Assembly (NCBI GenBank): GCA_024637095.1
Contig: JAGXFV010000030.1
Location: 1 to 64,000, forward strand
Direction: 5' to 3'
Source of the DNA: Actinomycetes bacterium
GTDB taxonomy: Bacteria > Actinomycetota > Thermoleophilia > RBG-16-64-13
DNA length: 64,000 nt
The notes beneath the pieces are model-generated. The model saw nothing but the letters and a program-made list of their open reading frames with translations, was not told the DNA's origin and ran no database searches. A program made the position numbers and the translations under genes. Positions 24,761 through 46,670 of this stretch are shown in pieces. Within the stretch, counting starts at the first letter, position 1, and every line of letters starts with the position of its first letter.

Positions 24761-26029
24761 CTACGGGAAGACCCCTCGCAGCTTCTTGGCGTTCGCCACC
24801 CGGCCCACGCCCAGGATGTAGGCGGCGGTGCGCATGGGAACGGATTCCTTCTGGGCGATGTCCAGCACTTCGTGGAATGCCCGGGTCATGATGCTGTCCA
24901 GCTTCTGGTTGATGTCGGCTTCGTTCCAGAAGAGTTTCTGCGTGTTCTGCACCCACTCGAAGTAACTGACCGTCACCCCGCCGCCATTAGCGAGGATGTC
25001 GGGCACCACGAAGACGCCCTTGTCGTAGAGGATCTCGTCGGCAGAAGGAGTGGTGGGGCCGTTGGCCGCCTCGGCCACCACCTGCGCCCGCACCCGGTCG
25101 GCGTTGTGGCCGGTGATCTGACCTTCCATCGCCGCCGGAATCAGCACATCCACCGGCAGTTCCAGGAGTTCGGCGTTGGTGATCTCATCCGTGCCGGCGG
25201 CTCCGGCCACCGTGCCCATTTCCGCTTTCCACTCTTTCAGTGCCTGGATGTCGAGCCCTTCGGAGCTGAACGCTCCCCCGGAGGAGTCGCTGACGGCGAC
25301 CACGCGCACGCCCATCTCGGAGAGCAGCCGGGCGGCGTGATAGCCGGCGTTGCCGAAGCCCTGCACCGCCGCGGTGCCTTCCTCGAGGTCCATGCCCATG
25401 TGGCGGAAGGCTTCCCGCACGGCATACACGCAGCCCTGGGCTGTGGCGGACTCGCGGCCCAGGCTACCGCCGATCTCGATGGGTTTACCCGTCACGACGC
25501 CCGTGACTGTGTGGCCCTTGAACATGGAGTATGTGTCCATGATCCAGGCCATAGTCTGAGCGTTTGTGTAGACGTCGGGGGCGGGGATGTCCTGGTCCGG
25601 CCCAATCAGGGGCGCGATCTCCCAGGTGAAGCGGCGCGTCATCCGCTCGATCTCGGCCAAGGAGAGCTCCTTGGGGTTGCACTGCACCCCGCCCTTGGCT
25701 CCGCCGAAGGGGATGTTCATGACGCCGCACTTCCAACTCATCCAGGCGGCCAGTGCCCGGACTTCGTCGAGGTCGACGTTTGGATGATAGCGGATCCCGC
25801 CTTTGCCCGGTCCCCGGCTGATGGAGTGCTGCACGCGGTGCCCGGTGAACATGCGGGTGCTGCCGTCGTCCATCGCCACCGGGAAGTGCACCGTCAATTC
25901 CCGGTGCCCGGTGCGCAGCACCTGTCGGAGCCCTTCCTCTAGTTTGAGGAAACTTGCGGCCTGGTCGAACTGGTGAAGCGCGACCTCCAGAGGTTTGGTC
26001 TCGTCGATCTGTCTTACGCTGACGGCCAT
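24761..26029 (-). CDS. gdhA: Glutamate dehydrogenase (Glu/Leu/Phe/Val dehydrogenase family)
   Basis: Interconverts glutamate and 2-oxoglutarate plus ammonia. The 422-residue protein has the substrate site SRGPGKGGIRYHP (about 70-82), GGAKGGVQCNP with a catalytic Lys, PAPDVYT with the catalytic Asp, and the dinucleotide-binding stretch VQGFGNAGYHAARLL near residue 225. This is the short hexameric type of many bacteria and archaea. It starts 11 bases after the stop of the GABA aminotransferase gene and should be co-transcribed with it, which suits recycling of glutamate formed by transamination back to 2-oxoglutarate. Coenzyme preference is not resolved. Confidence 0.92.
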   Translation of the reverse strand: MAVSVRQIDETKPLEVALHQFDQAASFLKLEEGLRQVLRTGHRELTVHFPVAMDDGSTRMFTGHRVQHSISRGPGKGGIRYHPNVDLDEVRALAAWMSWKCGVMNIPFGGAKGGVQCNPKELSLAEIERMTRRFTWEIAPLIGPDQDIPAPDVYTNAQTMAWIMDTYSMFKGHTVTGVVTGKPIEIGGSLGRESATAQGCVYAVREAFRHMGMDLEEGTAAVQGFGNAGYHAARLLSEMGVRVVAVSDSSGGAFSSEGLDIQALKEWKAEMGTVAGAAGTDEITNAELLELPVDVLIPAAMEGQITGHNADRVRAQVVAEAANGPTTPSADEILYDKGVFVVPDILANGGGVTVSYFEWVQNTQKLFWNEADINQKLDSIMTRAFHEVLDIAQKESVPMRTAAYILGVGRVANAKKLRGVFP

Positions 26030-43579: not shown

Positions 43580-44827
43580 GTGGAAATAACCAGCACTCCG
43601 GACATGTCGAACAACCGGCCGGACACCACCAACGTGGGTCTGCGCGGAATCACCGTAGCCGATACCAAGATCAGCGACGTTCAGGCCGAAGAGGGCCGCC
43701 TCGTCTATCGGGGTTACGATATTCAGACGCTCGCCGCCCGGTCGGACTTCGAGGAAGTCGTCTTTCTGCTGCTCTACGGCGACCTCCCACTAGACAGCGA
43801 GTACGGTCGCTTGCACCACCGGCTGGGCGAGCGCAGGCAGATTTCGCCGCATATCCTTGAACTCGTTCGGCAGTATCCGCAGGACCTTCGCCCGATGGAT
43901 TTTCTGCAGGCCGCAGTGCCCCTCCTCAAGATGGGCGATCCCCGGCCGGAGGACTCAAAGGACGTGGTGCGCGAACGCGCCGTGGACCTGACCGCCAAGA
44001 TGGCCACGCTGGTGGCGGCCTACCACCGGCTCCGTTCGGGGCTCGAGCCGATCGAGGCGGACCCCGAATTGGACCACGCCGCCGATTTCCTGCGCATGCT
44101 GTCGGGTGAGACTCCTGACAAAGAAGTCGCCCGCCTGCTGGACGTGGCCTTGTTGCTGCACGCCGACCACTCCATGAACGCCTCGACCTTCGTGGCCCGG
44201 GCAGTCACCAGCACCCGCGCCCATACGTATTCGGCCGTGGCCGCTGCGATCGGCGCGCTCTCCGGCGATTTGCACGGGGGCGCGAACTCCCGGGTCATGG
44301 AGATGCTGCTCGAGATCCAAGAGCTCGACCGGGTGGAGGCCTATGTCCAGGGAAGGCTTAGCCGCGGAGAGAAGATCATGGGCATGGGGCACCGGGTGTA
44401 CGCCACTTACGACCCCCGCTCGCTGATTCTGCAGGATCTGATCAGGCAACTCGGAGGCGACCGGGACCTTCACTGGCTGAAACTGACCCAAGAGGTGGAA
44501 ACCAGCACGCGGCGGATCTTCCGACAGCTGAAGGGCAAGGACATCTATCCCAATGTCGACCTCTACTCGGCGTCGCTCTACTACATGATGGGGATCCCGG
44601 TCGACCTGTTCCCACCGGTGTTTGCCATGAGCCGCGTAGCCGGCTGGTGCGCGCACATAATCGAGGAACGCTTTGCCGAAGCGGCGGAAAGGCCGGCGCT
44701 CTACCGCCCGCTGGCGCGCTACGTGGGGCACTACTGCGGACCGGAGGAGTGCACGTACGAGCCGATGGCCGAGCGCCACGCGACGCAGGAAGTGAGCCCC
44801 GAGGGCGCTTCAGAAAGTCAACACTAG
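43580..44827 (+). CDS. gltA: Citrate synthase
   Basis: Condenses acetyl-CoA and oxaloacetate to citrate, the entry step of the TCA cycle. The 415-residue protein has GLRGITVADTKISDV near the N-terminus and the three catalytic residues in LLHADHSMNASTF (His), MGMGHRVYATYDPR (His) and YPNVDLYSASLYY (Asp). This resembles the shorter type I enzyme of Gram-positive bacteria and archaea; 2-methylcitrate synthase activity is possible for this group. The start is GTG at 43580 after GAGAGGG. Aconitase is only 1.9 kb downstream, with leuA between. Confidence 0.93.
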   Translation: MEITSTPDMSNNRPDTTNVGLRGITVADTKISDVQAEEGRLVYRGYDIQTLAARSDFEEVVFLLLYGDLPLDSEYGRLHHRLGERRQISPHILELVRQYPQDLRPMDFLQAAVPLLKMGDPRPEDSKDVVRERAVDLTAKMATLVAAYHRLRSGLEPIEADPELDHAADFLRMLSGETPDKEVARLLDVALLLHADHSMNASTFVARAVTSTRAHTYSAVAAAIGALSGDLHGGANSRVMEMLLEIQELDRVEAYVQGRLSRGEKIMGMGHRVYATYDPRSLILQDLIRQLGGDRDLHWLKLTQEVETSTRRIFRQLKGKDIYPNVDLYSASLYYMMGIPVDLFPPVFAMSRVAGWCAHIIEERFAEAAERPALYRPLARYVGHYCGPEECTYEPMAERHATQEVSPEGASESQH

Positions 44828-44841
44828 CCTTCGATCCGCCC

Positions 44842-44880
44842 GGGGATATGCCGCGGATATAACGGGGATATGCCGCGGAT
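44842..44880. repeat. Two 17-bp direct repeats before the leuA promoter
   Basis: GGGGATATGCCGCGGAT occurs at 44842-44858 and 44864-44880 (period 22, about two helical turns), starting 34 bases upstream of the leuA -35. The spacing would place a bound protein on one DNA face. Confidence 0.75.
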
Positions 44881-44913
44881 GTGGTCCCAAACCGTCCTCC
44901 ATGGGCGGTAGCC

Positions 44914-44942
44914 TTGCTCCCGAGGGCGGGTTGTTCTATACT
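44914..44942 (+). promoter_or_regulatory. Promoter of the leuA leader transcript
   Basis: TTGCTC (44914-44919) and TATACT (44937-44942) with a 17-base spacer. The expected start point, about 44949-44951, coincides with the leader-peptide ATG at 44951, so the leader message would be leaderless or nearly so. Confidence 0.7.
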
Positions 44943-44950
44943 GTTCGCCC

Positions 44951-45001
44951 ATGTCTTTGCCACGACTCACTCTACGCTCTCTCCTGCTGCTCCCCCTCTA
45001 G
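44951..45001 (+). CDS. leuA leader peptide (16 residues, 8 Leu)
   Basis: The frame encodes MSLPRLTLRSLLLLPL and a TAG stop: half the residues are leucine, including four consecutive Leu codons (CTC CTG CTG CTC at 44981-44992) and one rare CTA (44972-44974). It sits between the promoter and leuA, ending 76 bases before the leuA start. Leu-rich leader peptides that sense charged leucyl-tRNA by ribosome stalling are known for leu operons; leaderless versions are known in actinobacteria. Too short for ordinary gene finding. The composition could not plausibly arise by chance at this position. Confidence 0.8.
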   Translation: MSLPRLTLRSLLLLPL

Positions 45002-45075
45002 GGGGAGAGAGAATCGCGGCCGGCGTATCCGGCACGTCACTTCCGGCATGATCACGAACATTTCCAAGGGGAGAG
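44977..45075 (+). promoter_or_regulatory. leuA attenuator: alternative RNA pairings
   Basis: The Leu-codon segment CTCTCTCC (44977-44984) can pair with GGAGAGAG (45004-45011) just after the leader stop. The overlapping CTCCCC (44990-44995) is complementary to GGGGAG (45068-45073) in the leuA Shine-Dalgarno AAGGGGAGAG (45066-45075). GCCGG (45019-45023) can pair with CCGGC at 45029-45033 or at 45043-45047. No T-tract follows, which favours control of translation or factor-dependent termination over intrinsic termination. Pairings are seen; the mechanism is inferred. Confidence 0.55.
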
Positions 45076-45077
45076 CT

Positions 45078-46670
45078 ATGTCCAGCCCTCAGGATAGGAC
45101 GCAGAAGGGGAAGCTCCGACGTAACGCGGGCGTTCCTGTGGTGTTCTTCGACACGACCCTTCGAGACGGGGAGCAGTCGCCCGGGATCAGCCTGAATGTC
45201 AGCGAGAAGCTCGAGATCGCGCACCAATTGGTCCGGCTGGGGGTCGACGTGATCGAGGCGGGCTTTCCCGCTACCAGCCCCGGTGACTTCGAGGCCGTAC
45301 AGGCGATCGCCCGCGAAGTGCGGGGGGCCACCGTATGCGGTCTGGCCCGCTGCGTGGAAACGGATATCCGAACCTGTTGGGAGGCTATCCAAGACGCGGA
45401 GAAGCCGCGGATTCACACCTTTGTTTCCACCTCGGACATCCATTTGCAGCATCAGATCAAGAAAACACGCGAGGAAGTCCTCGAACTCACCGAGCGCATG
45501 GTCAAATTGGCAGTCTCTCTGAGTTCGGGTGACGTCCAGTTCAGCGCGATGGACGCCACCCGTTCCGACATCGACTTCCTCGCCGCGGTGCTGCGCCGAG
45601 CTGTGCAGGCCGGCGCAACCACCATCAACGTGCCGGACACCGTGGGTTACACGCTGCCCATGGAGTTTGGGCCGCTGATCGACACGCTGTATGAGCGCGT
45701 ACCCGAATTGGCCGACGTCGTCCTTGCGGTTCACTGTCATAACGATCTCGGCCTGGCCGTGGGCAACACGTTGGCAGCGGTCGCTCAGGGCGCCACGCAG
45801 GTCGAGGTGTCGGTCAACGGACTGGGGGAACGCGCCGGCAATGCCGCCCTGGAGGAGGTCGCGATGGCGCTCCGGGTAAGGCAGGACCTGCTCGGACGTC
45901 CGGTTGACATAGTCACCACCGAGATCTCCCGTACCAGCCGCATGGTGTCCAACCTGACCGGCTACGAAGTCCAGCCCAACAAGGCCATCGTGGGTAAGAA
46001 CGCCTTCGCCCACGAGTCGGGGATTCACCAGGACGGGGTCCTCAAGGAGCGCAGCACTTACGAGATCATGCGTGCCGGCGATATCGGCCTGGGCGAGTCC
46101 GATATCGTGCTGGGCAAGCACTCGGGGCGTCACGCTCTGCAGTCGCGACTGGTCGAACTGGGCATCCACCTGAGCGGCAGCCAACTGGACGAGGCCTTCC
46201 GGCGCTTCAAGGAGATCGCCGACAAGAAGAAGCAGGTCACGGCACTCGATCTGGAGGCTCTGGCCGGGGAGGAGATCCGCGAGCGCGAGGACATCTACCA
46301 CCTCAATCACTTCTACGTGGCGGCGGGCTCCAACATGATTCCCACCAGCCAGGTGGGCGTCCGCAAGGAAGGAGAGGAGCAACCGGGCAAGGCGTTTTCC
46401 GGCGGCTCCGTCGAATCGATCTTCCGGGCGATCGACGACGCCGTGGGCATCAGCGGCAAGCTGATGGACTATCGGGTGCGTTCCATCACGTCGGGCAAGG
46501 ACTCGCTCGGCGAGGTGCGGGTGGTCGTCGAATTCGAGGGTAGAACTTACGCCGGCCAGGCGGTGGCCATCGACGTGATGGAAGCCTCGGCCAAGGCTTA
46601 TATCAGGGCGCTCAATAACGTGACCCAGCAAAAAGAGGCAACAGGAGCGAATCCCGAAAGAGTCTTCTGA
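45078..46670 (+). CDS. leuA: 2-isopropylmalate synthase
   Basis: First committed enzyme of leucine synthesis, joining acetyl-CoA and 2-ketoisovalerate. From the ATG at 45078 (AAGGGGAGAG upstream) it has 530 residues: catalytic TIM barrel starting FFDTTLRDGEQSPGISL, metal ligands in HCHNDLGLAVGNTLAA, NGLGERAGNAALEEV, KHSGRHALQSRL in the linker, and the C-terminal LeuA regulatory domain (YRVRSITSGKDSLGEVRVVVEF) for leucine feedback. This is the LeuA type 1 layout. A leader peptide controls it. Citramalate or homocitrate synthase activity is less likely given the full regulatory domain and the leader. Confidence 0.93.
   Translation: MSSPQDRTQKGKLRRNAGVPVVFFDTTLRDGEQSPGISLNVSEKLEIAHQLVRLGVDVIEAGFPATSPGDFEAVQAIAREVRGATVCGLARCVETDIRTCWEAIQDAEKPRIHTFVSTSDIHLQHQIKKTREEVLELTERMVKLAVSLSSGDVQFSAMDATRSDIDFLAAVLRRAVQAGATTINVPDTVGYTLPMEFGPLIDTLYERVPELADVVLAVHCHNDLGLAVGNTLAAVAQGATQVEVSVNGLGERAGNAALEEVAMALRVRQDLLGRPVDIVTTEISRTSRMVSNLTGYEVQPNKAIVGKNAFAHESGIHQDGVLKERSTYEIMRAGDIGLGESDIVLGKHSGRHALQSRLVELGIHLSGSQLDEAFRRFKEIADKKKQVTALDLEALAGEEIREREDIYHLNHFYVAAGSNMIPTSQVGVRKEGEEQPGKAFSGGSVESIFRAIDDAVGISGKLMDYRVRSITSGKDSLGEVRVVVEFEGRTYAGQAVAIDVMEASAKAYIRALNNVTQQKEATGANPERVF

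What the first reader, a model, noticed from the sequence alone, without database searches (positions are those of the whole stretch)
44914..45077. Leucine-rich, probably leaderless leader peptide controlling leuA, with Leu codons complementary to the leuA Shine-Dalgarno
Seen: promoter TTGCTC-17-TATACT whose expected start falls on the ATG of a 16-codon frame encoding MSLPRLTLRSLLLLPL (8 Leu). The C/T-rich Leu codons can pair with GGAGAGAG just after the leader stop or with the leuA Shine-Dalgarno GGGGAG at 45068-45073. Known: leu leader peptides regulate by ribosome stalling at Leu codons. Inference: a stalled ribosome covers the anti-Shine-Dalgarno and frees leuA translation. There is no U-tract terminator, so this looks like translational attenuation.
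Basis: partly seen in the sequence, partly recalled or inferred. Interest (0 to 1): 0.75.

Follow-up and report, generated by a model that had tools for sequence, protein, structure and literature searches.

The report
Leucine-sensing leader switch before leuA
A tiny leucine-rich peptide gene just ahead of the leucine-synthesis gene leuA appears to act as a leucine gauge: its own message folds onto the leuA ribosome-binding site and is pulled away when ribosomes stall for lack of leucine, a known type of switch that is found here in a deep branch of the Actinomycetota where it had apparently not been described.

Summary
At 44951-45001 lies a 16-codon frame (MSLPRLTLRSLLLLPL*) whose ATG sits 8 nt after TATACT, 77 nt upstream of leuA (TIGR00973). 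The same architecture precedes leuA in all 15 family members read and in about 80 loci of the class, probably Thermoleophilia. It consists of a -10 box 6-12 nt before the leader ATG (leaderless), a Leu run just before a C-run/G-run hairpin at the stop codon (P1), a second hairpin (P2), no U-tract, and a helix (P0) joining the leader's coding strand to the leuA ribosome-binding region. P0 shows compensatory changes in the window's own family and stronger ones in sister clades. A stalled ribosome on the Leu codons abolishes P0 in silico; one at the stop codon does not. The best explanation is leucine-responsive translational attenuation. This is a member or variant of the actinobacterial LEU element (Seliverstov 2005), whose leaderless, terminator-less leuA leader is reported for Streptomyces. 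New here: the clade, the other leuA type, covariation support for the Leu-strand:SD helix, and a Solirubrobacterales variant in which the leader start pairs with the leuA start. There is no experimental proof.

The parts
44914..44919 (+). -35-like TTGCTC
   Evidence: TTG at 17-18 nt from the -10 in 10 of 15 family loci and in 17 of 17 loci of two sister clades
44937..44942 (+). -10 box TATACT, 8 nt before the leader ATG
   Evidence: TANACT at 6-9 nt in 15/15 family loci, 0 of 771 control ATGs
44951..45001 (+). leaderless leader-peptide gene MSLPRLTLRSLLLLPL* (leuL-like)
   Evidence: frame conserved upstream of leuA across the class; Leu at the 4 codons before Pro in 86-99% of 80 loci
44976..44984 (+). 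P0 5' strand (anti-SD), GCUCUCUCC, codons 9-12 of the leader
   Evidence: pairs with 45068-45076, predicted probability 1.0; helix with covariation in the family alignment
44990..45007 (+). P1 hairpin CUCCCCC/GGGGGAG enclosing the stop codon
   Evidence: present in all four clades; probability 0.98-1.0
45019..45033 (+). P2 hairpin GCCGG/CCGGC
   Evidence: present in all four clades with different stem sequences (GUUUGCC/GGCAAAC, GCGGC/GCCGC, GGCC/GGCC)
45068..45076 (+). leuA Shine-Dalgarno region GGGGAGAGC, P0 3' strand
   Evidence: sequence; SD unpaired probability 0.00 in the free fold
45078..46670 (+). leuA, 2-isopropylmalate synthase (530 aa)
   Evidence: TIGR00973 704 bits, cut-off 598.7

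Best explanation
The segment is a leucine-responsive translational attenuator of leuA. Transcription starts at or next to the leader ATG, so 70S ribosomes initiate on the 5'-terminal AUG (inferred). When charged tRNA-Leu is plentiful, ribosomes clear the leader and release at the stop codon. P1 closes, the codon 9-12 strand (GCUCUCUCC) pairs with the leuA Shine-Dalgarno (P0), and leuA is poorly translated. When leucine is short, ribosomes stall in the Leu run and cover that strand, P0 cannot form, and the leuA SD is open. Shown by sequence and comparison: the frame, the -10/ATG spacing, Leu conservation, P1, P2, P0 with covariation, absence of a terminator, and position before leuA (once before leuS). 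Inferred: the start of transcription, stalling, and the effect on leuA.
For: Leaderless spacing conserved. Leu run conserved with varied synonymous codons. P0 recovered by RNAalifold in the window's family and in sister clade f6. In the family alignment P0 is 94.7% paired, 3 of its 5 pairs have changes on both sides, and the covariation score of the whole structure was reached in 0/500 shuffles. Own-versus-swapped partners: p = 0.067 (window family), 0.037 and 0.034 (sister clades) for the RBS; below 5e-5 over the downstream region in 49 Solirubrobacterales-type loci. In the window, synonymous recoding weakens RBS pairing (p = 0.015). In silico, ribosomes with the P-site at codons 6-15 reduce P0 to 0, while at the stop codon P0 is 0.87-1.0. 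Averaged over 15, 9 and 48 loci of three clades, RBS:leader pairing falls on Leu stalling and persists at the stop. The covariance model gives one hit per genome in 27 of 397 genomes, 25 directly before leuA and one before leuS.
Against: No expression, start-site or ribosome data exist for this organism. Leu codons (CUC) are intrinsically complementary to SD sequences, so some pairing comes for free: within the window's family the partner-swap test is only suggestive (p = 0.067) and synonymous recoding is not significant in most members. The free fold of the leader is not unusually stable (z = -1.05). In silico opening of the SD on stalling is partial (about 0.3 unpaired), and clade f3 shows no rise in RBS accessibility. 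For S. coelicolor leuA, leader mutations gave effects not consistent with classical attenuation (as cited in PMC1262725).
Confidence: 0.75

Rival explanations
1. The leader acts mainly on transcription: with leucine present, ribosomes leave the leader early and Rho terminates in the uncovered C-rich RNA; stalling or leuA translation protects it.
For: No intrinsic terminator is present, and Rho was suggested for actinobacterial leaders without terminators (PMC1262725). Other Actinomycetota leuA leaders (L122-L124, L133) do carry terminator-like hairpins with T-rich tracts.
Against: It does not require the conserved leader-strand:SD helix and its compensatory changes, nor the persistence of P0 with a ribosome at the stop. 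The two mechanisms could act together.
Confidence: 0.12
2. A leucine-dependent protein (or another ligand) binds the folded leader and blocks leuA translation; the peptide frame is secondary.
For: Proposed for the LEU element in 2005, with a helicase-domain protein as candidate (PMC1262725); compact P1/P2/P0 fold conserved.
Against: A protein site does not explain near-invariant Leu residues with free choice among synonymous codons, nor the strictly kept -10/ATG spacing. P2 stem sequences differ entirely between clades.
Confidence: 0.08
3. The frame is not regulatory: the leader region is part of an N-terminally extended leuA or an incidental frame.
For: The leuA frame is open upstream to an ATG at 44901.
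Against: The extension begins upstream of the -10 box; the leader frame is in another phase and is conserved in about 80 loci, whereas the length of the open leuA frame varies between relatives; SD GGGGAG sits properly before ATG 45078.
Confidence: 0.03

Closest known systems
LEU element upstream of leuA in Actinobacteria (Seliverstov et al. 2005, PMC1262725)
   Same: Leader frame with a Leu run; Leu-codon strand proposed to pair with the leuA SD; no terminator; located before leuA
   Different: A covariance model of this element finds no Actinomycetes leaders at E <= 0.01. It precedes the TIGR00973 type of leuA; the actinomycete leuA loci carrying LeuL-like leaders read here are the TIGR00970 type. 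The pseudoknot was not tested. P1 encloses or abuts the stop codon.
LeuL1 leader of Streptomyces lividans (MRFGLLLLSCRGEGL*, leaderless, no Rho-independent terminator; PMC8079986)
   Same: Leaderless Leu-run peptide before leuA without terminator; the same peptide was read in locus L120
   Different: Different downstream hairpins and leuA type
Polycysteine leaderless uORFs of mycobacteria (Canestrari et al. 2020, cited in PMC9031893)
   Same: Leaderless short frame whose amino-acid-dependent elongation controls the downstream gene
   Different: Cysteine rather than leucine; tested experimentally there, not here
Classical transcription attenuators (e.g. C. glutamicum ilvBNC, leuS leaders of Streptomyces)
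   Same: Amino-acid codon run sensing charged tRNA
   Different: Those use terminator/antiterminator hairpins with U-tracts; none here

Membership tests
Actinobacterial LEU element | upstream frame with a run of Leu codons before leuA | tested here: met
Actinobacterial LEU element | base stem between the Leu-codon strand and the leuA Shine-Dalgarno | tested here: met
   in the window the strand is codons 9-12 (Arg-Ser-Leu-Leu)
Actinobacterial LEU element | conserved pseudoknot (or alternative hairpin) inside the base stem | not tested
   P1 and P2 hairpins found; no pseudoknot prediction was run, and the 2005 alignment figures are not held
Actinobacterial LEU element | sequence/structure similarity to Actinomycetes copies | tested here: inconclusive
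   model R1 hits only the same class plus one doubtful match; the comparison is limited because R1 holds 6 pairs (P1) and its flanks only
Leaderless amino-acid leader peptide | -10 box 6-9 nt before the leader ATG, no SD | tested here: met
   transcription start itself not measured
Classical transcription attenuator | intrinsic terminator between leader and gene | tested here: not met
Translational attenuator | stalling-dependent opening of the downstream SD | tested here: inconclusive
   supported in silico, no experiment
Any Rfam family | match at gathering score | tested here: not met

The most novel reading that the evidence does not exclude
The leader gene serves as an antisense copy of the downstream ribosome-binding region. 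In the window's clade its coding strand covers the leuA SD; in Solirubrobacterales-type relatives the leader's own 5' start (AUGUCG...) pairs with the leuA start (...CGACAU), so that occupancy of the leader start and exposure of the leuA start are coupled. The partner strand changes by clade while the logic is kept.
Probability: 0.5. Interest if true: 0.6.

Novelty: new variant of a known kind. Interest (0 to 1): 0.45.

Why it matters
The mechanism of the LEU element was left open in 2005 between attenuation and a regulatory protein, and the Streptomyces leader data were ambiguous. A clade in which the leader strand pairs directly with the SD, with compensatory changes and a ribosome-position switch that can be drawn on the sequence, makes the translational-attenuation reading directly testable with two point mutants. 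It also indicates that the leaderless Leu leader reaches beyond Actinomycetes and occurs before two different leuA types and, in one genome, before leuS.

Tried and rejected
Rfam at gathering and at permissive E-value: nothing relevant. Start-to-start pairing for the window's own family: rejected (own -3.8 versus swapped -4.2 kcal/mol, p = 0.84). Thermodynamic stability of the whole leader as evidence: not significant (z = -1.05). Further copies of the P1 motif in the host genome: only degenerate matches, no more frequent than the backwards control. MAFFT/RNAalifold on the 46 Solirubrobacterales-type sequences missed the long helix because its register shifts; the partner-swap test was used instead. 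A first script for hairpin tallies failed and was rerun. A covariance-model hit in G074 (E = 0.0035) is taken as chance: no leuA match follows it.

Full report
WHAT IS THERE. The coordinates given are exact: TTGCTC-17-TATACT, then 8 nt, then the ATG of a 16-codon frame with 8 Leu at 44951-45001. The leuA Shine-Dalgarno GGGGAG is at 45068-45073 and the leuA ATG at 45078. The downstream protein is a 2-isopropylmalate synthase of the TIGR00973 type (704 bits). The upstream gene is a citrate synthase ending at 44827; the next gene downstream is aconitase AcnA. The host is an actinomycetotal MAG. Its nearest named relative is isolate Soudan_30 (LeuA 95% identical), and same-class relatives share contigs with records named Thermoleophilia and Solirubrobacteraceae, so the class is probably Thermoleophilia (inference).

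IS IT MORE THAN CHANCE. In the window, 635 ATG frames of 10-60 codons exist on both strands. Four have at least 4 Leu in 5 codons near their end, and only one has TANACT 6-9 nt upstream, namely this one. In the 15 family loci every leader ATG has TANACT at 6-9 nt, against 0 of 771 other ATGs in those loci; across 82 loci, 81 have TANNNT 6-12 nt before an in-frame start (the start was chosen among in-frame candidates by that hexamer, so only the family figure is independent of the choice). Leader length varies (about 14-51 codons in the loci read) and the N-terminus is free, but the last codons before the Pro/C-run are Leu in 99, 98, 96 and 86% of 80 loci, written with CTT, CTC and CTG. This is the pattern expected when leucine itself is read.

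ANATOMY. The predicted fold of the window leader has three elements. P1 is CUCCCCC 44990-44996 with GGGGGAG 45001-45007, enclosing the stop codon. P2 is GCCGG 45019-45023 with CCGGC 45029-45033. P0 is GCUCUCUCC 44976-44984 with GGGGAGAGC 45068-45076, which buries the leuA SD. P1 and P2 occur in all four clades examined; P2 has entirely different stem sequences between clades (GCCGG/CCGGC, GUUUGCC/GGCAAAC, GGCC/GGCC, GCGGC/GCCGC). The stop codon lies inside P1 in the window's family and just after it in most Solirubrobacterales-type leaders, so P1 is conserved as RNA rather than as peptide.

IS THE SD HELIX REAL. CUC codons are naturally complementary to SD sequences, so I tested beyond complementarity. 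RNAalifold, given only the alignments, places P0 in the window's family and in clade f6. In the family, P0 is 94.7% paired, three of five pairs have changes on both sides, and for the whole structure (16 pairs) the covariation score is reached by 0 of 500 shuffles; sliding the partner by one column lowers pairing from 96 to 69-73%. Giving each leader a foreign RBS weakens pairing: p = 0.067 (family, n = 15), 0.037 (f6, n = 9), 0.034 (f3, n = 8); for Solirubrobacterales-type loci the RBS alone gives p = 0.11, but the whole downstream region below 5e-5 (n = 49). Related sequences are not independent, so these values are indicative. Recoding with synonymous codons weakens RBS pairing in the window (p = 0.015) and in most f6 loci, but not in most of the family. 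I read this as good evidence for P0 in the element generally and moderate evidence within the window's own family.

HOW IT WOULD WORK. With a simple footprint (12 nt before to 14 nt after the first P-site base), ribosomes with the P-site at codons 6-15 abolish P0, whereas one at the stop codon restores it (0.87-1.0). Averaged over loci, pairing of the leuA RBS with the leader drops from 0.58 to 0.32 (family), 0.55 to 0.18 (f6) and 0.49 to 0.26 (Solirubrobacterales type) on Leu stalling, and returns to 0.50-0.61 at the stop; in f3 the change is small (0.59 to 0.47) and RBS accessibility does not rise. No terminator lies between leader and leuA. Leucine-dependent translational attenuation is therefore the best-supported mechanism; a Rho component cannot be excluded.

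A VARIANT IN RELATIVES. In Solirubrobacterales-type loci the Leu run pairs with a purine stretch upstream of the SD. In addition the leader start (AUGUCGUUC and variants) pairs with the leuA start (GAACGACAU and variants): own -9.9 versus swapped -7.5 kcal/mol, p below 5e-5, with compensated cases such as AUGACG:CGUCAU in L099 and GUGCC:GGCAU in L101. The window's family lacks this (p = 0.84).

DISTRIBUTION. A covariance model built from 49 sequences finds one hit per genome in 27 of 397 genomes of the phylum, 26 of them in the same class. In 25, leuA follows directly. In one (G026) the element precedes leuS (TIGR00396, 938 bits), with a TIGR00970-type leuA further downstream. The G074 hit is probably chance. 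Bacillota leuA loci brought in by the same protein search had no recognisable element.

COMPARISON WITH WHAT IS KNOWN. Seliverstov et al. 2005 (PMC1262725) described the LEU element of actinobacterial leuA: a Leu-run leader peptide, Leu codons pairing with the leuA SD, and a pseudoknot; they left the mechanism open and favoured a binding protein because S. coelicolor leader mutations were not consistent with classical attenuation. The S. lividans leuA leader MRFGLLLLSCRGEGL* is reported as leaderless and without a terminator (PMC8079986); the same peptide was read in L120 before a TIGR00970 leuA. Mycobacterial polycysteine leaderless frames are an experimentally tested analogue (cited in PMC9031893). 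The present element works like, and is probably a variant of, the LEU element. The pseudoknot was not tested, and homology with the Actinomycetes copies was not demonstrated (the model does not find them). Papers describing it in Thermoleophilia were not found in the held library, which does not prove absence from the literature.

VERDICT. Confirmed observation and supported interpretation, of a known kind, with useful new comparative evidence and an unreported-looking variant in relatives.

Noticed in passing
L042, L051, L059, L060, L096, L099, L101 and other Solirubrobacterales-type loci: The leader start region (AUGUCGUUC and variants) is complementary to the leuA start region with compensatory changes; absent in the window's family.
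   Followed up: yes
L176 (G026:C85:20800-26600), element at 25884-25945 of the contig, minus strand: The same leader element sits before leuS (leucyl-tRNA synthetase), with a TIGR00970-type leuA further downstream on the same strand.
   Followed up: partly
L122, L123, L124, L133: In other Actinomycetota the leuA leader ends LLLT* or similar and is followed by a GC-rich hairpin with a T-rich tract, i.e. it looks like a transcription attenuator rather than a translational one.
   Followed up: no
L071, L075, L076: Freshwater Solirubrobacterales MAGs keep the hairpin and frame but have a degraded Leu run (e.g. MARSAHTIRSILILPLSGE), possibly loss of leucine sensing.
   Followed up: no
window 44841-44880: Short tandem-like repeat (CGGGGATATGCCGCGGAT twice, with a diverged copy between) between the citrate synthase gene and the leader promoter; not seen in the upstream stretch of the same-genus locus L003.
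   Followed up: no
window 44913-44930: Terminator-like inverted repeat CTTGCTCCCGAGGGCGGG overlapping the -35 region of the leader promoter.
   Followed up: no
L110, L105: Records titled Bifidobacterium breve and Chlamydiae bacterium carry Solirubrobacterales-type leuA and leader; probably mislabelled MAG contigs.
   Followed up: no
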